Positions 1-51,057 of a stretch of 64,000 nucleotides of DNA are shown here, in pieces. The stretch spans positions 1 through 64,000 of the forward strand of contig NZ_CP118181.1 of NCBI RefSeq assembly GCF_028748145.1, in the 5' to 3' direction. This stretch comes from Entomospira culicis. GTDB taxonomy: Bacteria > Spirochaetota > Spirochaetia > WRBN01. The translations under genes were made by a program, and so were the position numbers. Position 1 is the stretch's first letter, and each line of letters starts with the position of its first letter. The notes beneath the pieces were generated by a model. The model was not told the DNA's origin and searched no databases. It was given only the letters and a program-made list of their open reading frames with translations.

Positions 1-2
1 TG

Positions 3-296
3 TTAACGGTGACAGGGATCTGGGTCTGGGGTAGGATCTGGGTCTGGGGTAGGATCTGGGTCTGGGGTAGGATCTGGGTCTGGGGTAGGATCTGGGTCTG
101 GGGTAGGATCTGGGTCTGGATTGGGATCTGGGTCTGGATTGGGATCTGGCTCTGGATCTGGATCTGGATCTGGTGCGGGTTTGTCTATGGTTTGATTGTT
201 CCCACTTGGCTGAGACTTAGACGCTGTTGGCTTACAACTTACTATGGTAGCCACACATAAAAGCAACAGCAAGGTTACTCTCTTTTTGCTAAACAT
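3..296 (-). pseudogene. truncated lipoprotein of the tandem DP-repeat family (copy 1)
   Basis: This 97-residue product begins with a lipoprotein signal peptide almost identical to those of the next three genes (basic MFSKKR start, Leu-rich core, lipobox IVSC with Cys21). A Ser/Asn spacer follows, then Asp-Pro-rich repeats: five TPDPDP units preceded by two NPDPDP units. It stops three residues after the repeats (CHR, stop at 3-5). The paralogues carry about 190 further residues as a conserved C-terminal domain, and this copy has none. It may be a broken gene, with the missing part lost or lying left of the window, or a deliberately short lipopeptide. The start has a Shine-Dalgarno AGGAGCG and matches the paralogue starts. 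Function is unknown; export and lipidation are inferred from the lipobox. Confidence 0.6.
16..141. repeat. 18-bp tandem repeat coding for (T/N)PDPDP
   Basis: Seven contiguous 18-bp units: five identical copies (16-105) and two variants that end in attg instead of ggta (106-141). They lie inside the truncated lipoprotein gene and encode Pro-Asp-rich hexapeptides. The unit length is a multiple of three, so slippage changes linker length without shifting the frame. Confidence 0.95.
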
Positions 297-352
297 ACAT
301 TTACGCTCCTTTATTTTTTATAGGGCAACGCCCCAATACTTGCGAAAATAAG

Positions 353-395
353 ATCAACCCAATAGCGAGATGGGAATAGTCACTATTAGGTTGAT
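353..395. other. inverted repeat between lipoprotein copies 1 and 2
   Basis: ATCAACCCAATAG (353-365) pairs with CTATTAGGTTGAT (383-395) with one mismatch. This forms a potential hairpin just past the stop of copy 2 and in the leader of copy 1. A related element (ATCAACC at 1239-1245 and GGTTGAT at 1274-1280) lies in the same relative place between copies 2 and 3, so the spacer was duplicated with the gene. A weak terminator or mRNA-stability element is likely; no long T run follows. Confidence 0.5.
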
Positions 396-440
396 GGTTA
401 CTAGGTTTAGAGCTATTGCGCGAGAAGTTTTGGCTGATGG

Positions 441-1181
441 TTATGCCATCGTGTAGACAAACTTCTCTAAATTGTCAAGATTGATGGGGTGCATATAGTA
501 GGATAAAAAAGTACTTTGCGGACTTATTCTAGATATAGCGATTGCGAGCAGGAGATAGAATTTTTCTCCAGCTTTTACGGCTAAATCGGGGAAGGTTTCG
601 TTTAAGGAGCTAACATCATCGTCTTGTAAAGACCAAGCTTCAGAGAACGACTTTGTATATCCAATTCTCTTTATTAGCTCGTTGGTAACGGTTGGGATAC
701 CCTCTTCACTATAAGACATGGTAGGGGCATTACGGTCAGTAAAGTTGAGGCGGAAGTCGTGCAAGTGAGGATTTAAAAAGAAGAACTCTTGTACTTCATT
801 ATGTTTTAGATAATTATAGCTTCCTAACCTCTTTTCTCCAACCCATTTGTTGAGAATAGAGACGAATTGGTTTGGGTTGGCGCGGAAGGCGTCTAACTTT
901 GCTTCAGGAACTAGAACGTAACGTAGGGAGATTTTCGTCTCCTCTGTAACGGAGTCCATTGCATCTTTAGGGAGAAATGGATAGGTAACAACAACATCAA
1001 TATCAGAGACTGGTGGCGGTGGTAGAGGATCTGGGTCTGGGGTAGGATCTGGATCTGGTGCGGGTTTGTCTATGGTTTGATTGTTCCCACTTGGGTTAGA
1101 TTTAGATGCTGAGGGCTTACAGCTTACTATGGTAGCCACACATAAAAGCAACAGCAAGGTTACTCTCTTTTTGTTAAACAT
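441..1181 (-). CDS. DP-repeat lipoprotein, paralogous family copy 2
   Basis: A 246-residue predicted lipoprotein. Signal peptide MFNKKRV plus a Leu-rich core ends in lipobox IVSC (Cys21), then a Ser/Asn spacer, a short Asp-Pro/Pro linker (about residues 38-57), and a C-terminal domain of about 190 residues shared with the next two genes. Shared landmarks are YPFLPK, a V/IPEAKL-AFR block, LNFT--APT-SY, VKAG-KFY and a final IN-DNLE. The start is set by AAGGAG nine bases upstream and by alignment with the paralogues; an upstream in-frame ATG at 1214 would spoil the signal peptide. It has the shortest linker of the intact copies. I do not recognise the C-terminal domain. An envelope or surface protein is inferred from lipidation plus the rigid linker. 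Confidence 0.8.
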   Translation of the reverse strand: MFNKKRVTLLLLLCVATIVSCKPSASKSNPSGNNQTIDKPAPDPDPTPDPDPLPPPPVSDIDVVVTYPFLPKDAMDSVTEETKISLRYVLVPEAKLDAFRANPNQFVSILNKWVGEKRLGSYNYLKHNEVQEFFFLNPHLHDFRLNFTDRNAPTMSYSEEGIPTVTNELIKRIGYTKSFSEAWSLQDDDVSSLNETFPDLAVKAGEKFYLLLAIAISRISPQSTFLSYYMHPINLDNLEKFVYTMA

Positions 1182-1325
1182 ACATTTACGCTCCTTTATT
1201 TTGTTATAGGGCAACGCCCCAATACTTGCAAAAATAAGATCAACCCAATATCGATATGAAATAGGTACTACTAGGTTGATGGTTGCTAGGTTTAGAGATA
1301 TGGCGTGAGAAGTTTTGGCTGATGG

Positions 1326-2033
1326 TTATGCCATCGTGTAGAGAAATTCTTCTAAATTGTCAAGATTAATGGTGTAGGTGTAGTATGGCGTTGGTTTATG
1401 GCTAACTTCTTGTACGCGTAAAAGAATGAGGAAGTAGAATTTATCCCCTGCTTTAACGCTTAATTCTGGGAAGGTTAGGTTTAAATCATCGATATCAAGA
1501 TCTTCTATATCCCAAGGTTCATTAAAAGGTTTGTGAAAGCCGATTTTTTGAAGCGGAGCATTAATGACGTCATCTATGTCCTCGCCAACGTAAGAGATGG
1601 TGGGTGCTTGGGGATCGGTAAAATTGAGTTGTATCCAATGTAGATGTGGGCGCAAAAAGAAGGCGGGTTGCTCAAGATAGTGCATCAAATAGTTATAGCG
1701 ACTTAGCGCATTTTTACTGCTCCATTGATTGAGCATCGGGACAAATTTATTGGGGTCTTCTCGGAATGCTTGTAATTTCGCTTCTGGAATCAAGAGATAA
1801 CGCAGAGAGATGCTCGCCTCCTTACTGACGGTATCTATCACCTCTTTGGGAAGAAAGGGATAGCTGGCAACAATATCACGCGAGGAGAGCGGTGCTGGTG
1901 GTTGAGTGAAATTTGGTATAGGGTTTGGCTTGGGAGGAGATGGTGGGGTAGACTTTGATGTTGATGGCTTACAGCTCACCATGGCACTTAGACAAAAAAG
2001 TAATGATAGAGTGATTCTTTTTTTGTTAAACAT
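1326..2033 (-). CDS. Pro-linker lipoprotein, paralogous family copy 3
   Basis: A 235-residue predicted lipoprotein of the same family. Signal peptide MFNKKRI with lipobox MVSC is followed by a short linker rich in Pro, Ser and Lys (about residues 25-50) in place of Asp-Pro repeats. The conserved C-terminal domain then begins at SSRDIVASYPFLPK. This domain is clearly closer to copy 2 than to copy 4. The Shine-Dalgarno AAGGAG lies eight to nine bases before ATG 2033; a longer in-frame start at 2138 would put 35 non-signal residues ahead of the leader and is rejected. Its 3' flank (1210-1325) closely repeats the 3' flank of copy 2, direct evidence for tandem duplication of gene plus spacer. Function unknown. 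Confidence 0.8.
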   Translation of the reverse strand: MFNKKRITLSLLFCLSAMVSCKPSTSKSTPPSPPKPNPIPNFTQPPAPLSSRDIVASYPFLPKEVIDTVSKEASISLRYLLIPEAKLQAFREDPNKFVPMLNQWSSKNALSRYNYLMHYLEQPAFFLRPHLHWIQLNFTDPQAPTISYVGEDIDDVINAPLQKIGFHKPFNEPWDIEDLDIDDLNLTFPELSVKAGDKFYFLILLRVQEVSHKPTPYYTYTINLDNLEEFLYTMA

Positions 2034-2150
2034 AGCAGTACGCTCCTTTATTTTTTTATTAGGCATTACCCTAATTTTTTCTGAAACTATTGGTAGATAA
2101 AGGGTGCTTGAAAAGAGAAAAGAGGCAAGAGATTCCATTATATAGAATGG

Positions 2151-3095
2151 TTAATCTCCCATCACATAAGAGATTGCTTCTAGATTGTCGATGTTGATGG
2201 GGTGAGAGTAGACGTTTAAGGGGTTACTCCTGTCTCTATTGAAAAAATTAAAGACGAAGAGGAGGTAAAATTTTTCGCCTGCTTTTACTTCCAACTTGGG
2301 TAAGAGAGTGTTTAAGAGCCTAACGTCCCTATTTTGCATTGACCAAGGTTCAGAGAAGAATATTTGGGGGTTGTAGTTTCTCCATAATTGCTCGTCAACA
2401 ACATTAATATCATTACTATTGGTATAAGAGACGGTGGGTGCCTTAGTGTTGGTAAAGTTAAGACGCAACCAGTGTGGGGAAGCTGTGAGCATGAATACAT
2501 CTTGATTCTCTCTATGGCTTAGGCCATAGATATCAATCATTGTAGTGCCGTCACTCCAGGTGTTTAGCTTGGGCATAAAGGCTTGAGGGTCGTCGCGGAA
2601 TGCGCTAAGTTTGGCCTCTGGAATGATATAGTACCCGATGTTCAGTATACTATTTGGGGCGAGAGCATCGCGCACTTCTTGGGGAATATCCCAATCGTTG
2701 GTGATGATATCTCTGGAAGAGACTGGGGTGGGGGCTGGTGTGCGTTTTGGTTCGGGATCTGGTTCAGGCTCAGGCTCGGGCTCTGGTTCTGGCTCTGGCT
2801 CTGGTTTAGGATCTGGTTCTGGCTCTGGCTCTGGTTTAGGATCTGGCTCTGGTTCTGGTTCAGGCTCGGGCTCTGGTTCAGGCTCTGGTTCAGGTTTAGG
2901 ATCTGGGTTAGGATCTGGGTTAGGCTCTGGTTCAGGTTTAGGAACTGGATTGGGTTCCGGATCTGGATCTGGTGCGGGTTTGTCTATTATTTGATTGTTG
3001 TTGTTCGTATTCGACTTAGATGCTGATGGCTTACAAGCAACTATTGCACTCATAGATAAAAGTAACAAAAGCGTCGCCCTTTTAGGGTTAAACAT
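2151..3095 (-). CDS. EP/DP-repeat lipoprotein, paralogous family copy 4
   Basis: A 314-residue predicted lipoprotein, first gene of the minus-strand array. Signal peptide MFNPKRA with lipobox IVAC (Cys21) is followed by a very long linker of alternating Pro with Glu, Asp, Lys and Asn (about residues 42-118), then the family C-terminal domain from SSRDI to the end. This domain is the most divergent of the three intact copies but keeps [32 protein letters not shown] and IN-DNLE. The start has AAGGAG at good spacing and a strong promoter upstream (3128-3156), so this copy probably leads the array. The acidic Pro linker should be extended and could hold the domain away from the membrane. No known function is recognised. 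Confidence 0.8.
2755..2970. repeat. 6-bp-based degenerate repeat coding for EP/DP/KP linker
   Basis: A run of hexamer-type units (variants of ggctct, ggttca and ggatct on the + strand) encodes the alternating Pro-Glu/Asp/Lys linker of lipoprotein copy 4. Units are mixed and not perfectly ordered, as expected for repeated slippage and recombination. The + strand reading of this stretch gives a Gly-Ser repeat that is only a shadow. Confidence 0.9.
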
Positions 3096-17378: not shown

Positions 17379-19124
17379 ATGCGACGTAAATTAGTAGGAT
17401 TTTTAGGTGCAGTGGTTTTGCTTTTAGGGGGTGTTCATTTAGGTCTCCAGATGCAAGCGCCACAGAAGATCGACGATTATCCGATGATTGCGCAAAATCC
17501 TGTTGCGCTAATGAGTACTGAATCGAGAGGCATGCGTTCGGCGAACCCCGCCATGTTAGATACGCAGTCCATTGAGCAAGCAGAGGTTATTAACCGTTTA
17601 CAAGGCGAGCGTGGTGAGACGGCCTCCCCTGATAGCTCACCAACACCAAAGGTTACACCCAAAAAAGAGTTGCCATCGAGTACCCCTGCTAAGCCCACAA
17701 CATCAACGCCTAGCGCGAGTAAACCTTCAACCAATCAAGGAACACCTCCTGCCGAGAAAAAGCCTACTACGTCCCCAGCGCCAAAGGTAACCACGCCTTC
17801 GGCAAGTAGTAATCCCCCTAAAACGAATACACCCGCTAAACCCGCGGCATCAACGCCTGCTACTCCCAATCCACCTGCAAATACTTCCCCGACGACACCA
17901 CCAAAGCAGAATCCTTCAACCAATCAAGGGACACCTCCTGCCGAGAAGAAACCGACTACGCCCCCAGCGCCTAAGGCAACCACGCCCTCGGCAAGCAGTA
18001 ATCCCCCTAAAGCGAATACGCCCGCTAAGCCAAGCACCCCTGCTAAACCCACGGCATCAACGCCTACTACTCCCAATCCACCTGCAAATACTTCCCCGAC
18101 GACACCATCAAAGCAGAATTCCTCGAGCAATCAAGGGACACCTCCTGCCGAGAAGAAACCGACTACGCCCCCAGCGCCTAAGGCAACCACGCCCTCGGCA
18201 AGTGGCAATCCCCCTAAAGCGAGTACGCCCGCTAAGCCAAGCACCCCTGCTAAATCCACGGCATCAACACCTAGCGCGAGTAATCCTTCAACCAATCAAG
18301 GAACACCTCCATCATCCTCTGCATCAGGTAACCCAACCAGCAAGCTTCCGGTGCGCGTAATTACTCCGCCTGCCACCGCTACGCCTCCTACCACCGCTAG
18401 CCCACCACCAGCGGAGAGCACGCAAACCCCAGCTCCGCAGAATCATCTGGTGCGTAGCCAGACGGGACTCTTTTTTAACATCGATCTTACCGAACGCGGT
18501 TGGGTGTTGATTACCAATGTTACCGGGCGATTGCAAGTGGTAGAGCGTACGATGTTAGAGAATAATGCTACACGCTATACCTTGCGTGCGATGGAATCGG
18601 GGAGCTATACGCTAGAGTTTAGCCGACAGTTGCCCAGTGGTTATGAAAAGCGTGAAGTTACCGTGGTGATTGATCCGTATCGAACGTCTACCGCATCTCC
18701 CGCGCCACAATCTGCGCCTAGCTCCGAGGTACAAGCAGCGATGACATTAGAAGAGATTATTTATCAGTCGCAAAGTGCACAAGCGATTGCCGCGCAAGCG
18801 CAGGCGTTGCGAGAGCAAAAAAACACATTAGGGCAAGCGGAGCTTAAGCGTGCGTTCGACCTCTTATGGCAAGAGCAAATTTATCACCTTTTAGCAACCG
18901 AACTGGGTGAGACTTTTGTCGCACGTTTTCGAGCCGATCCGGTGAGTGCGGAGGTACTCTATCGCTTGGCGCAGATCTTTGAAAATCACACGCAAGCGCG
19001 CGATCTACGCCGATCTTATAACTATTACCGACGTGTCTTTGAGGAGTATCCCATTACCCCATACAGCCGTTTAAGTAAAGAGCGCATGGATCATCTCGAT
19101 CGCTTTTTCTTTCAAATTCAATAA
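17379..19124 (+). CDS. anchored Pro/Thr/Ser-repeat protein with helical C-terminal domain
   Basis: A 581-residue protein. An N-terminal hydrophobic segment (about 5-24) may be a signal anchor. Residues about 85-345 are low-complexity Pro, Thr, Ser, Ala and Lys, built on three long imperfect repeats that begin NQGTPPAEKKPTT. Residues about 350-430 form a small beta-rich domain (TGLFFNIDLTERGWVLITNV), and after a second Pro/Ser linker the C-terminus (about 465-581) is helical with a TPR-like segment (RRSYNYYRRVFEEYPITPYSRLSKERM) reminiscent of BamD/YbgF tails. An envelope-spanning tether that binds a partner at its end is a reasonable inference. The role is unknown. It precedes lgt by 28 bp. 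Confidence 0.7.
   Translation: MRRKLVGFLGAVVLLLGGVHLGLQMQAPQKIDDYPMIAQNPVALMSTESRGMRSANPAMLDTQSIEQAEVINRLQGERGETASPDSSPTPKVTPKKELPSSTPAKPTTSTPSASKPSTNQGTPPAEKKPTTSPAPKVTTPSASSNPPKTNTPAKPAASTPATPNPPANTSPTTPPKQNPSTNQGTPPAEKKPTTPPAPKATTPSASSNPPKANTPAKPSTPAKPTASTPTTPNPPANTSPTTPSKQNSSSNQGTPPAEKKPTTPPAPKATTPSASGNPPKASTPAKPSTPAKSTASTPSASNPSTNQGTPPSSSASGNPTSKLPVRVITPPATATPPTTASPPPAESTQTPAPQNHLVRSQTGLFFNIDLTERGWVLITNVTGRLQVVERTMLENNATRYTLRAMESGSYTLEFSRQLPSGYEKREVTVVIDPYRTSTASPAPQSAPSSEVQAAMTLEEIIYQSQSAQAIAAQAQALREQKNTLGQAELKRAFDLLWQEQIYHLLATELGETFVARFRADPVSAEVLYRLAQIFENHTQARDLRRSYNYYRRVFEEYPITPYSRLSKERMDHLDRFFFQIQ
17733..18293. repeat. three long in-frame coding repeats (189, 207 and 165 bp)
   Basis: Units begin with AATCAAGG-ACACCTCC at 17733, 17922 and 18129, and a partial fourth begins at 18294. 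They encode 63, 69 and 55 residues of Pro/Thr/Ser-rich linker and differ by in-frame insertion or deletion of short blocks such as KPSTPA. Units 2 and 3 are nearly identical over long stretches, which implies recent duplication or gene conversion. Confidence 0.9.
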
Positions 19125-22331: not shown

Positions 22332-22490
22332 GTGTTGGAGGTAGTGAGGAGCATGCTATCGGAATGCTTTTTGTTAAAGCGTTGATTAGTATGGAATTAT
22401 TTTTTTATCTTTTATTTGTATAGGTTGATAGGCATATAAACTTTAGCTGTTGTGCAAAAATAAATTCATTTATGCCCAAGTTATCCACAA

Positions 22491-22519
22491 GATAATAAAA
22501 ATTTTTTCTCTTATCCACA
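22491..22519 (+). promoter_or_regulatory. two direct DnaA boxes upstream of mnmE
   Basis: TTATCCACA at 22491-22499 and 22511-22519, same orientation, start-to-start 20 bp (two helical turns), separated by an AT-only-like stretch. They are about 100 bases before mnmE. Confidence 0.8.
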
Positions 22520-22616
22520 AGGAGGAAATAAATTTTTTTCTCTCAAGTAGCAATTTATTTAGCCGATAATGATATCAATTTGGCAATTTTATCGATAAAG
22601 CGAGGAGACATCTGCG

Positions 22617-23951
22617 ATGGAAGCACTCTATACCAACGAGCCGATTGTAGCACTGGCAACGCCTTGGGGACGTTCGGCACTGGCAGTAATTCGCCTGAGT
22701 GGGGAGGGCACGCTGGCCTTATTAGCGTCGAGCTTTACGGGAAAGTTAGACCAGTCGCACCGCATGGTTTTTGGTAAACTGGTTGACAGGCAGAGCAACC
22801 AAACGCTTGATGAGGTGATGATTGCTCCTTTTACCCATGGAGCAGGCTACACGGGCGAGGAGGCTTGTGAGATCTATTGTCATGGTAATCCACATTTAAT
22901 TGAGACAATTCTTCATTACTTAGTGAGTTGTGGTTTTCGGTTGGCGCTTCCGGGGGAATTTTCGTATCGTGCGGTGAAGCATGGCAAGATGGATTTAACC
23001 CAAGCCGAGGCAGTGCATGAGTTGATCATGGCACAGACAGCGCTGGCGGCACAATCGGCATTGCATCGATTATCGGGTGGCTTGGGCAAGGAATTCGGTG
23101 CGATCTATCAAGCCATTATCGATCGTTTGGGGGCGGTGGAGGCCTATTTAGATTATCCTGAAGAGGAGCTAGAGCCTTTTGTCTGGCTACCATTAGATAG
23201 CTTGCGCGAACAATTATTTCGCTATCTTAAAGAAGAGCCGATTGGACAAATTTTGCAAGAGGGTGCGTTGGTGGTCTTGGCCGGAGAACCGAACGTGGGT
23301 AAGAGTTCGCTCTTTAACTGGTTGGTGGGCAGTGAGCGGGCGATTGTCTCGCCAGAAGCTGGTACGACACGTGATTATATTGAGGTAACGCTGGATGTGC
23401 ACGGTTATCCGATTCGTTTGGTAGATACTGCGGGCTTGCGCGAGAGTGCGCAGGCGATTGAGCAGATGGGCATCCAGAAGAGCTATGAACTCTTAGCTCA
23501 GGCGGATGTGATTCTCTATCTTACTACACCAGCGCAACCTGCCGATGATGATTTTATGCTAATGTATAGAGATAAGTTGATTTGGTTAGAGAATAAGCGC
23601 GATGCATTGGCTAGAGATGCGCAAGTTGGAATGGAGGAACGCTTGGCGATATCGGTATTAAAAGGGTTGGGGTTGGAGGAGATGTTGGCAAAGCTGGTCG
23701 CGCATATCGACCCCGATGGCGTGGCTAAACGTCGCGAGCATGCACTTTTGGGTTCGTTGCGTCAGCGGGAAATTGTACAACAGGCGCTTAACACGTTGGT
23801 AGAGTGCGAGGCGCTTGCTAAGGAAGATGCCCTCGATTTGGTGGCCTTTACGTTGCGAAAAGCCAGCGGATATTTTGCCCAACTCATTGGCACGGATATG
23901 CAACAAGATGCCATGGACGCGATGTTTCGTCAGTTTTGTTTGGGCAAGTAG
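22617..23951 (+). CDS. mnmE: tRNA modification GTPase MnmE
   Basis: A 444-residue protein of normal length. The N-terminal folate-binding domain has ATPWGRSALAVIRLSG (about 15-30) and RPLPGEFSYRAVKHGKMDL-like sequence. The G domain begins near residue 215 with P-loop GEPNVGKSS (about 222-230), then a GTTRDYIE switch and DTAGLRES. The C-terminus ends in the FCxGK-type FCLGK motif needed for catalysis. With MnmG (encoded at 56989) it makes the (carboxymethyl)aminomethyl modification at wobble U34 of several tRNAs. ATG 22617 has GAGGAG upstream. DnaA boxes lie in its promoter region. Confidence 0.97.
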   Translation: MEALYTNEPIVALATPWGRSALAVIRLSGEGTLALLASSFTGKLDQSHRMVFGKLVDRQSNQTLDEVMIAPFTHGAGYTGEEACEIYCHGNPHLIETILHYLVSCGFRLALPGEFSYRAVKHGKMDLTQAEAVHELIMAQTALAAQSALHRLSGGLGKEFGAIYQAIIDRLGAVEAYLDYPEEELEPFVWLPLDSLREQLFRYLKEEPIGQILQEGALVVLAGEPNVGKSSLFNWLVGSERAIVSPEAGTTRDYIEVTLDVHGYPIRLVDTAGLRESAQAIEQMGIQKSYELLAQADVILYLTTPAQPADDDFMLMYRDKLIWLENKRDALARDAQVGMEERLAISVLKGLGLEEMLAKLVAHIDPDGVAKRREHALLGSLRQREIVQQALNTLVECEALAKEDALDLVAFTLRKASGYFAQLIGTDMQQDAMDAMFRQFCLGK

Positions 23952-48234: not shown

Positions 48235-49059
48235 ATGATTATCAATCATAATATGAGTGCGATGAACGCCAATCGAAATTTAAACAACACCAATCAGGTG
48301 ATGCGTAAGGACATGGAGAAGCTTGCTACGGGGCAACGTATTACCCGCGCAGGCGATGATGCTTCTGGGTTGGCGGTTTCGGAGAAGATGCGCGCGCAGG
48401 TGCGTGGATTGAATCAGGCTGTTCGTAACATTAATGATGGTGTTTCGTTTATTCAGACCACCGAGGGGTATCTGCAAGGCACTACAGAATCGCTACAACG
48501 TATCCGAGAGTTATCGGTGCAGGCGGCTAACGGTATCTATGCCGAAGAGGATCGTGGGTATATTCAGGTTGAGGTTTCGCAGATGGTAACGGAGATTAAC
48601 CGAATTGCCTCACAGGCGCAGTTCAACACGATGAATCTTTTGGATGGGAATTTAGCCGAAGGGACGGAAGGGATGCGTATCCATATGGGCGCGAATACGG
48701 ATCAGTACTCGTCGATGTATGTGAACTCGATGAGTGCGGAGTCGCTGGGTGTGGAGGGTATCAGCTTGCTTACGGCGGACGAGGCTAATACTGCGATTGC
48801 GACAGTGGATCGCGCTCTACAGATGGTGAGTAGCGAGCGCTCCAATTTGGGTGCGTATCAAAACCGTATGGAGATGGCCTCGCGTAGTCAGGCAACGGCA
48901 TCGGAGAATCTCCAATCTACGGAGAGCCAGATTCGCGATTTGAATATGGCAAACGGAATGGTTGAGTTAAGTCGTGAGCAAATTTTGAATCAAGCTGGTA
49001 CGGCGATGCTGGCACAAGCCAATCAAAGTAGCTCTGGTGTGATGCGACTTTTGGGATAA
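48235..49059 (+). CDS. flaB: periplasmic flagellar filament core protein FlaB, copy 1
   Basis: A 274-residue spirochaete core flagellin. The conserved N-terminal D0/D1 region [20 protein letters not shown] and [19 protein letters not shown], and the C-terminal [21 protein letters not shown] and [16 protein letters not shown], are near-identical to the next two genes; the short variable part lies at about 150-200. There is no D2/D3 domain, as in other FlaB proteins. Proteins are exported through the flagellar type III system and form the periplasmic filament core under the FlaA sheath. GGAGG precedes ATG 48235. Codon use is closer to that of ordinary genes than in copies 2 and 3. Confidence 0.97.
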   Translation: MIINHNMSAMNANRNLNNTNQVMRKDMEKLATGQRITRAGDDASGLAVSEKMRAQVRGLNQAVRNINDGVSFIQTTEGYLQGTTESLQRIRELSVQAANGIYAEEDRGYIQVEVSQMVTEINRIASQAQFNTMNLLDGNLAEGTEGMRIHMGANTDQYSSMYVNSMSAESLGVEGISLLTADEANTAIATVDRALQMVSSERSNLGAYQNRMEMASRSQATASENLQSTESQIRDLNMANGMVELSREQILNQAGTAMLAQANQSSSGVMRLLG

Positions 49060-49088
49060 TTTGCACAAATTGTAAAGAAAAATTTCGA

Positions 49089-49124
49089 GAAAGAGTACAG
49101 TTTGATGTGCTCTTTCTTATTTAT
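49089..49124 (+). terminator. terminator after flaB copy 1
   Basis: GAAAGAGTACA (49089-49099) and TGTGCTCTTTC (49106-49116), one G-T pair, six-base loop, then TTATTTAT. Confidence 0.8.
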
Positions 49125-49290
49125 AATATAAGAGGATAAAAATTTTCAGAAAGAATGTGAATTTTTGCATTAGGTACTTCCCTTTTTTTTATAAACATGT
49201 TATACTTAATATAAATCTGGCAGAAATGCCTAAAACCAAGAATGAGTGCAAAATGGATTTTTGTACTTCAGAATCTATGGAGGGAGAAAA

Positions 49291-50115
49291 ATGATTATCA
49301 ATCACAACATGAGTGCGATGAACGCAAATCGCAACTTAGACAACACCAATCAAGTTATGCGCAAAGACATGGAGAAGTTGGCTCAAGGTCAACGCATCAC
49401 CCGCGCTGGTGATGACGCTTCGGGGCTTGCTGTATCGGAGAAGATGCGCGCACAAGTTCGCGGTTTAAACCAAGCTGTTCGTAACATCAATGACGGTGTT
49501 TCTTTTATTCAAACCACCGAGGGTTACCTACAAGGTACCACCGAGTCTCTACAACGTATTCGTGAGCTCTCCGTACAGGCTGCTAACGGTATCTACGCTG
49601 AAGAAGATCGTGGTTATATCCAAGTAGAGGTTTCCCAAATGGTAACCGAGATCAACCGTATTGCTTCTCAAGCTCAGTTCAACACCATGAACCTTCTTGA
49701 TGGTACCATGGCTGAGGGAACTGACGGTATGCGTATCCACATGGGTGCTAACACCGATCAATACTCGTTTATGTATGTTAATTCGATGACCGCTGAGGCT
49801 CTTGGCGTAGAGGGTGCTGATGTTACCACTATGGATAACGCTAACACCTTGATCGCTACCGTTGATAACGCTCTAAAAACCGTTAATGAACAACGTTCTA
49901 ACCTTGGTGCATACCAGAACCGCATGGAAATGGCTTCCCGTAGTCAGGCAACTGCTTCGGAGAACCTACAATCCACCGAGAGCCAAATTCGTGATTTGAA
50001 TATGGCAACTGGTATGGTTGAGCTTGCTCGTGAGCAAATCCTTAACCAAGCTGGTACTGCTATGCTTGCACAAGCTAACCAGAGCACAGCTAGTGTTACT
50101 CGTCTTCTTAACTAA
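49291..50115 (+). CDS. flaB: periplasmic flagellar filament core protein FlaB, copy 2
   Basis: A 274-residue FlaB, nearly identical to copy 1 over the first 150 and last 70 residues, with differences at about 155-200 ([11 protein letters not shown] then [14 protein letters not shown]). Codons are strongly biased towards GCT, GGT, ACC, AAC and CGT, typical of a highly expressed gene, so this may be the main filament subunit. ATG 49291 follows GGAGGGAG; an in-frame start at 49246 would add 15 residues not found in FlaB. It has terminators on both sides, so it is probably transcribed singly, perhaps from a TATACT-containing promoter near 49201. Confidence 0.97.
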
Positions 50116-50141
50116 AATTTAGCTTAAGTTTGATAATGAAA

Positions 50142-50173
50142 ACCCGTCTTTATAAGAGACGGGTCTCTTTTTT
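50142..50173 (+). terminator. strong intrinsic terminator after flaB copy 2
   Basis: ACCCGTCT (50142-50149) and AGACGGGT (50157-50164), seven-base loop, followed by CTCTTTTTTTC. Only about 40 bases remain before the next flaB start. Confidence 0.9.
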
Positions 50174-50214
50174 TCTTAATAAAAGAGAGTCAGTATGTTA
50201 ATCAGGAGGAACAA

Positions 50215-51057
50215 ATGATTATCAATCACAACATGAGTGCGATGAACGCAAATCGTAATCTCAACAACACCAATCAGGTTATGCGTAAAGACATGGAAAA
50301 ATTGGCTCAAGGTCAACGCATTACCCGCGCCGGCGACGACGCTTCGGGACTCGCGGTATCGGAAAAGATGCGCGCACAAGTACGCGGCTTAAACCAAGCC
50401 GTACGCAACATGAATGATGGCGTCTCTTTTATTCAAACAACAGAAGGCTACCTACAAGGCACCACCGACGCGCTTCAACGTATCCGTGAGCTCTCCGTGC
50501 AGGCAGCCAACGGTATCTACGCTGAAGAAGATCGTGGATATATTCAGGTTGAGGTCGATCAGATGGTAACCGAGATTAGCCGTATCGCATCCCAAGCCGA
50601 GTTCAACACCATGAAGCTTTTGACTGGTGATTTTGGCGAAGGCACGAGCGGAATGCGTATCCATATGGGTGCTAACACCGATCAATTTACCACCATGTAC
50701 GTGGGCGCAATGACTCCAGAGGCGTTAAGCATTGGTACCGATCAGGGTGAGTCGCTGGTTGATGTCTCGACCATGGATGGTGCTAACAGCTCGATTGCGA
50801 TGGTTGATGTCGCACTCCAAACGGTTAATCGCCAGCGCGCCGATCTTGGTGCCTATCAAAACCGCATGGAGATGGCTTCTCGTTCCCAAGCAATTGCTTC
50901 GGAAAACCTACAATCCACCGAGAGCCAAATCCGTGATCTCAATATGGCAAGTGGCATGGTCGAACTTGCACGTGAGCAGATTCTCAATCAAGCTGGAACT
51001 GCCATGCTTGCCCAAGCCAATCAGAGTGCAGCAACTGTTACGCGCCTCTTAGGTTAA
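50215..51057 (+). CDS. flaB: periplasmic flagellar filament core protein FlaB, copy 3
   Basis: A 280-residue FlaB; six residues longer than copies 1 and 2 because of a longer variable segment (about 160-205, SIGTDQGESLVDVSTMDGANS). N- and C-terminal regions are near-identical to the other copies. Codon use is biased with many C-ending codons. AGGAGG precedes ATG 50215. Because a strong terminator stands between it and copy 2, either read-through or a promoter squeezed into about 50 bases must drive it; a lower level than copy 2 is likely. A terminator follows. Confidence 0.97.
   Translation: MIINHNMSAMNANRNLNNTNQVMRKDMEKLAQGQRITRAGDDASGLAVSEKMRAQVRGLNQAVRNMNDGVSFIQTTEGYLQGTTDALQRIRELSVQAANGIYAEEDRGYIQVEVDQMVTEISRIASQAEFNTMKLLTGDFGEGTSGMRIHMGANTDQFTTMYVGAMTPEALSIGTDQGESLVDVSTMDGANSSIAMVDVALQTVNRQRADLGAYQNRMEMASRSQAIASENLQSTESQIRDLNMASGMVELAREQILNQAGTAMLAQANQSAATVTRLLG

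What the first reader, a model, noticed from the sequence alone, without database searches (positions are those of the whole stretch)
1..3095. Tandem array of four lipoproteins with variable repeat linkers
Four adjacent genes share near-identical signal peptides, and the three intact ones share a C-terminal domain. Linkers differ greatly: 18-bp TPDPDP units, a short DP/Pro stretch, a Ser/Pro stretch, and a long EP/DP/KP run. Spacers are duplicated too. Rigid acidic Pro linkers of variable length on lipid-anchored domains suit surface proteins that vary by slippage and recombination. The C-terminal domain is unfamiliar.
Basis: partly seen in the sequence, partly recalled or inferred. Interest (0 to 1): 0.58.

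Follow-up and report, generated by a model that had tools for sequence, protein, structure and literature searches.

The report
Spirochaete lipoproteins on repeat-built stalks
A bacterium from mosquitoes carries a family of 16 membrane-anchored proteins, most of them holding one compact domain out on a stalk built from short DNA repeats, and some of the genes look as if they have swapped parts with their neighbours.

Summary
The genome is Entomospira culicis BR151, a mosquito-gut spirochaete (replicon sizes add up to the base). The window begins at a contig end inside the 18-bp repeats of the fourth gene, so that gene's truncation is an assembly edge. Its other half and three more genes lie at the far end of the same contig: the array has seven genes, not four. 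Iterated profile searches found two further three-gene arrays and three single genes, 16 members in all. All have a lipobox and a C-terminal domain of 161-215 residues; 10 of 16 carry an in-frame tandem-repeat stalk, of a different sequence in each array. In each array some members share a 5' module although their domains have diverged; gene O joins an N-like 5' half to a P-like 3' half, a sign of recombination. Strain-level length change and surface exposure are untested. No convincing relative in 393 other genomes of the class, Pfam, NCBIfam or PDB. Best reading: stalk-and-head surface lipoproteins that work like Periscope Proteins, but with unfolded stalks. New variant of a known kind; interest 0.5.

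The parts
2151..3095 (-). gene A, 314-residue lipoprotein; lipobox IVAC (Cys21)
2721..3032 (-). stalk of A, 104 residues, EP/DP/KP-rich, degenerate 6-42-bp tandem repeats
2154..2720 (-). C-terminal domain of A (189 residues)
1326..2033 (-). gene B, 235-residue lipoprotein; short Pro/Ser linker (28 residues), no tandem repeat
1329..1886 (-). C-terminal domain of B (186 residues)
441..1181 (-). gene C, 246-residue lipoprotein; 36-residue linker with a single TPDPDP unit
444..1010 (-). C-terminal domain of C (189 residues)
16..296 (-). 5' part of gene D: signal peptide, leader and TPDPDP stalk; the rest lies at C1:1638857-1639585 (L018:13858-14586)
16..173 (-). 18-bp tandem repeat, 8.8 copies, in the stalk of D
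1..15 (.). contig-end bases found nowhere else in the genome; they supply the apparent stop of gene D
354..394 (.). inverted repeat in the C-D spacer (TCAACCYAATAG arms), terminator-like by eye; not called by the scan
1240..1279 (.). the same inverted repeat in the B-C spacer

Best explanation
The array is the largest cluster of a 16-member family of lipoproteins of Entomospira culicis. Shown from sequence: every member has a lipobox signal peptide and one C-terminal domain of 161-215 residues, modelled as a mixed but mainly beta fold; 10 of 16 carry between anchor and domain a stalk of in-frame tandem repeats, of a different sequence in each array; in each of the three arrays some members share a 5' module while their domains have diverged. 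Inferred: the lipid holds the protein in the outer membrane, the extended acidic or Gly/Asn stalk lifts the domain away from it, repeat number sets the reach, and the domain binds something in the mosquito gut or on neighbouring cells. Tandem duplication, change of repeat number and exchange of 5' modules, with crossovers in or near the linker, produce new pairings of promoter, stalk length and head. Status of the steps: anatomy shown; recombination shown by mosaic genes; length variation likely but not seen; surface exposure and binding inferred.
For: Lipobox with [AGS]C at position 17-21 in 16 of 16. Family and arrays; profile-profile P 5.7e-10, 2.6e-9, 1e-6. Repeat stalks in 10 of 16. Unit variants private to each gene. 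Excess of identical synonymous codons in leader over domain: C-E 35/37 v 45/95, D-E 34/36 v 62/105, N-O 34/35 v 36/63, I-J 17/18 v 47/93. Mosaic gene O. No acidic residue in the first three positions after the Cys in any member; in Borrelia, acidic patches close to the anchor are the known inner-membrane retention signal (PMC2987989, passages).
Against: No second strain was compared, so length variation is unseen. Six of 16 members have no tandem repeat. Members H, M and array 3 have acidic residues within about ten positions of the Cys. In Treponema many lipoproteins are argued to be periplasmic, including one with an unfolded N-terminal region (PMC7521688). No ligand and no fold match. Six of ten gene pairs show no or only marginal leader excess.
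Confidence: 0.55

Rival explanations
1. The proteins face the periplasm. The stalk lets a domain anchored in one membrane reach across the peptidoglycan layer to a partner or small ligand; the paralogues differ in ligand.
For: Treponemal TP0751 has the same plan, lipid anchor, unfolded region and beta-rich domain, and is argued to be periplasmic and ligand-binding (PMC7521688, passages). Array 1 lies upstream of a solute-binding protein and sugar-transport and alpha-amylase-type genes, and a PTS gene lies near array 3.
Against: Sixteen fast-diverging paralogues (28-71% identity in array 1) with stalks from 20 to 306 residues are more than a fixed periplasmic gap needs. The array-1 spacers and the sugar genes are not shown to be co-transcribed, and array 2 has no sugar genes beside it.
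Confidence: 0.3
2. Ordinary lipoprotein paralogues whose unfolded linker tolerates minisatellite growth; the repeats have no function of their own.
For: Six of 16 members do without repeats. Repeat sequences are unlike between arrays, as expected if any hydrophilic filler is tolerated.
Against: Repeats were gained in all three arrays and in 10 of 13 array genes, in whole codons and between anchor and head. Five other lipobox proteins in the same stretches scored 3-5 on a crude repeat measure, against 12-105 for A, E, F, I and J (that scan missed D, H, K, L, N, O and P, and gave B, C, G and M only 3-5).
Confidence: 0.15

Closest known systems
Periscope Proteins (PMC9704523, passages read)
   Same: One functional head projected from the cell on a stalk coded by highly alike tandem DNA repeats; repeat number would set the reach.
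   Different: Their stalk repeats are domains that fold individually, anchored by sortase or by an inverse autotransporter barrel. Here the units are mostly 5-7 residues (29 and 33 in F), Pro-rich or Gly/Asn-rich, the anchor is a lipid, the order is anchor-stalk-head from the N-terminus, and strain variation is unseen.
Variable lipoproteins (Vlp) of Mycoplasma hyorhinis (PMC12815946, passages read)
   Same: Family of lipoproteins with a shared signal sequence and in-frame repeats.
   Different: In Vlp the repeats are region III, the outer part (its C-terminal place is recalled); here they lie between anchor and a folded head. Different phylum, no sequence similarity tested.
TP0751 of Treponema pallidum (PMC7521688, passages read)
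   Same: Spirochaete lipoprotein with an unfolded N-terminal region and a beta-rich C-terminal domain.
   Different: A single lipocalin protein argued to be periplasmic; the passages read mention no repeat stalk and no array.

Membership tests
Bacterial lipoproteins (spirochaetal lipobox) | n-region with Lys/Arg, hydrophobic stretch, [AGS]C within the first 17-21 residues | tested here: met
   read from sequence for 16 of 16 members; no signal-peptide program was at hand
Bacterial lipoproteins (spirochaetal lipobox) | lipidation of the Cys | not testable with these tools
   needs labelling or mass spectrometry
Periscope Proteins | stalk coded by highly identical tandem repeats | tested here: met
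   met by most of the 10 repeat-bearing members: 93-100% matches in D, E, F, I, J, K, N, P; O 81-91% and A 74-80% are more degenerate
Periscope Proteins | each stalk repeat folds as a domain | tested here: not met
   units are mostly 5-7 residues, too short to fold; the 29- and 33-residue units of F are Pro/Ala/Ser/Thr-rich and were not modelled
Periscope Proteins | repeat number varies between strains | not testable with these tools
   only one genome of the genus is held
Periscope Proteins | head exposed at the cell surface | not testable with these tools
   needs surface proteolysis
Mycoplasma Vlp-type variable lipoproteins | repeats form the outer region, with no separate folded head beyond them | tested here: not met
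   a conserved domain of 161-215 residues follows the stalk in all members; that Vlp lack such a head is recalled
Lipocalins (as TP0751) | eight-stranded antiparallel barrel | tested here: inconclusive
   no lipocalin among the listed rows; absence from the list excludes nothing
FadR C-terminal domain (PF07840) | family match above the gathering score across members | tested here: not met
   1 of 16 members matches, over about 50 residues (25.1 bits, cut-off 23.6); 15 do not

The most novel reading that the evidence does not exclude
The linker DNA is the hinge of a cassette system. Minisatellites of unlike sequence arose separately in the three arrays and act as crossover zones, so that a promoter-signal-leader module can be moved onto different heads and stalk length reset in the same event, giving a mosquito-gut spirochaete a shuffling surface coat built on a domain family for which no model or structure was found.
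Probability: 0.25. Interest if true: 0.68.

Novelty: new variant of a known kind. Interest (0 to 1): 0.5.

Why it matters
Sixteen genes are about 1% of the 1,623 protein genes reported for BR151, with no convincing family model in Pfam or NCBIfam. Entomospira can be cultured, so stalk-length variation, surface exposure and module exchange can be tested directly in a spirochaete from mosquitoes. The repeats could serve as strain-typing markers, and they explain why the chromosome record ends where it does.

Tried and rejected
Homologues outside the genome: genome contigs with gene C (17 pattern stretches, 0 confirmed); genome contigs with the neighbouring solute-binding protein, to fetch sister Entomospira loci (2 relatives at 26-27% identity, Photobacterium and Filibacter); plasmid records by tblastn with 4 of the 16 members (C, I, L, O; no match); 393 other genomes of the class with profiles of 7, 13 and 16 rows. 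Two outside matches were rejected: G008 (signal peptide and AP-rich linker of an unrelated binding protein) and G254 (68 positions inside a long protein without a lipobox).

Foldseek gave no match at E 0.001 or better in PDB or viral models. VIA-align gave Z 3.4 at best, to T-box (Ig-like) domains, with adhesin ester-bond domains at 2.2-2.7: too weak to use. PDB sequence search: best E 0.12 and 0.046. Whole-protein hits to PARP, SslE, internalin and the like cover the repeat linkers or are weak, and reflect composition. The 17th genome match (E 1.0) was not counted. YN00 dN/dS failed; only NG86 values exist, many saturated. The terminator scan called only one of the array-1 hairpins.

The 96-base difference between the BR149 N50 (1,639,683) and C1 (1,639,587) was considered as a hint of repeat change and dropped: contig ends can differ for other reasons.

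Full report
WHERE IT IS. The genome is held as 1,769,585 bases in 4 contigs, and C1 has 1,639,587 bases. The total equals C1 plus the plasmid sizes 98,591, 28,402 and 3,005 published for Entomospira culicis BR151; the sister strain BR149 has 3,028 for the last (PMC11636382, main text read apart from the end of the reference list). The window is the first 64 kb of C1. Both strains came from Culex pipiens midguts.

THE EDGE. The fourth gene of the finding (D) stops inside the first bases of C1. The first 15 bases occur once in the genome, right there. At the other end of C1 an open frame begins with seven TPDPDP units and runs on into the missing domain. The assembly used Illumina reads of 150 bases and Nanopore reads averaging 1,897 bases, so a break inside an 18-bp repeat is unsurprising. 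Six of the seven units on the far side have the same 18 bases as the four on the near side, whereas six of seven units in gene E differ by one base. This fits one gene D, but gene C has one unit of the D type too, and unseen genes in the gap cannot be excluded.

ARRAY 1. In order of transcription A, B, C, D, E, F, G, between ychF (recognised by eye) and a DUF1622 gene, which is followed by a solute-binding protein and transport genes. Linkers from Cys to domain: A 104, B 28, C 36, D at least 72 on one side and 53 on the other, E 88, F 306, G 30 residues. F has 87-bp units (5.1 copies) and 99-bp units (3.0 copies).

THE FAMILY. A profile of the seven domains found an eighth member, H, at E 8.8e-4. 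With H added, the profile brought a second array of three (I, J, K) and two more singles (L, M). The 13-row profile brought a third array: two places at E 0.004 and 0.035, where three genes N, O, P lie. The 16-row profile recovers the 16 members at E 4.5e-30 or better and a 17th place at E 1.0, which I do not count; members that built the profile match it by construction. Less circular support is the profile-profile comparison of the groups: P 5.7e-10 for array 1 with 2, 2.6e-9 for the 13 with array 3, 1e-6 for array 2 with 3, and only about 1e-4 for array 1 with the singles, array 2 with the singles and array 1 with array 3. One Trp is invariant in all 16, in the motif W-x3-[DN]-x-[DE]-[IV]. 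A tree puts array 2, array 3 and the singles each on one well-supported branch; array 1 is one group only weakly (41/67), with long branches for A, G and H.

THE STALKS. TRF finds in-frame tandem repeats in 10 of 16 members: A, D, E, F, I, J, K, N, O, P. B, C and G have none at score 50; H, L and M have none at score 40. Units are 15, 18, 21, 87 and 99 bp, plus 33- and 45-bp readings in array 3 and several readings of 6 to 42 bp in the degenerate run of A: all are whole codons. The arrays use unlike sequences: PDPDP/EP in array 1, PNPEx and PPIDDNK in array 2, GGNDN in array 3. The singles have linkers of 20-30 residues. That Pro-rich stalks are extended and Gly/Asn ones flexible is general knowledge, not tested here.

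RECOMBINATION. I compared codons for the same residue in two genes, first in signal plus leader (24-40 codons), then in the domain. Four of ten pairs show a clear excess of identical codons in the leader: C-E 35/37 against 45/95 (p 1e-7), D-E 34/36 against 62/105 (2.4e-5), N-O 34/35 against 36/63 (7e-6), I-J 17/18 against 47/93 (3e-4). A-E is marginal (0.047). C-D (0.079), N-P (0.099), B-C (0.21), A-C (0.37) and O-P (0.81) show none, so the leader is not constrained as such. These p values are not corrected for ten tests. Gene O is the clearest mosaic: its 110 upstream bases match N at 90 and P at 55 of 99; its leader protein equals N over 40 residues; but its domain matches P at 148 of 198 residues and N at 66 of 184, and downstream it matches P at 80 of 105 and N at 56 of 89. 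Shuffling the codon states gave a run as long as the observed one in 0 of 2000 tries for C-E and N-O, 8 for O-P, 67 for A-C, 136 for I-J and 1560 for B-C. In array 1, C is like D upstream (101 of 109) and like B downstream (90%). In O the switch lies in or near the linker; a crossover in the repeats themselves is inference.

THE HEAD. The better model (gene D domain, seven-row alignment) has mean pLDDT 87.9 and pTM 0.87, but the other four models score 43.8-68.5, so it needs caution. It has seven strands of five or more residues and five helices. No structure in PDB or the viral library matches at E 0.001; VIA-align gives Z 3.4 at most, to Ig-like T-box domains. No Pfam or NCBIfam family matches more than one member's domain.

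DISTRIBUTION. Of 394 genomes of the class searched, own included, only the own genome has a convincing match; the one other held genome of the family has none. Only one genome of the genus is held, and sister species could not be reached, so the family may be genus-wide or confined to this species.

MECHANISM AND LITERATURE. Periscope Proteins project a head on a repeat stalk whose length varies, but are defined by folded repeats (PMC9704523, passages). Borrelia lipoproteins have an N-terminal tether that guides them to the surface, and acidic patches near the anchor hold them in the inner membrane (PMC2987989, passages). Members here have no acidic residue in the first three positions after the Cys, though H, M and array 3 have some within about ten. 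Against surface exposure stands the view that many treponemal lipoproteins are periplasmic (PMC7521688, passages). A search for papers holding both Entomospira and lipoprotein found 0 in the held library; the genus description holds neither 'lipoprotein' nor 'repeat' in its main text (PMC7554043, outline and term search).

Noticed in passing
window 17379-19124 (+): A 581-residue protein with a long Pro/Thr/Ser-rich stretch and a 207-bp tandem repeat (2.1 copies, 94%); no Pfam match.
   Followed up: partly
window 48235-51057 (+): Three adjacent genes that read as near-identical flagellins (recognised by eye).
   Followed up: no
L066:1330-3060 (-): A 16S rRNA gene and a tRNA lie just downstream of array 3.
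   Followed up: partly
L038:2051-3354 (-): Two adjacent genes with nearly the same N-terminal sequence beside single member H, another tandem pair of unknown function.
   Followed up: no
window 22481-22541: Two 30-bp copies holding TTATCCACA, DnaA-box-like as recalled, ahead of a gene at 22617.
   Followed up: no
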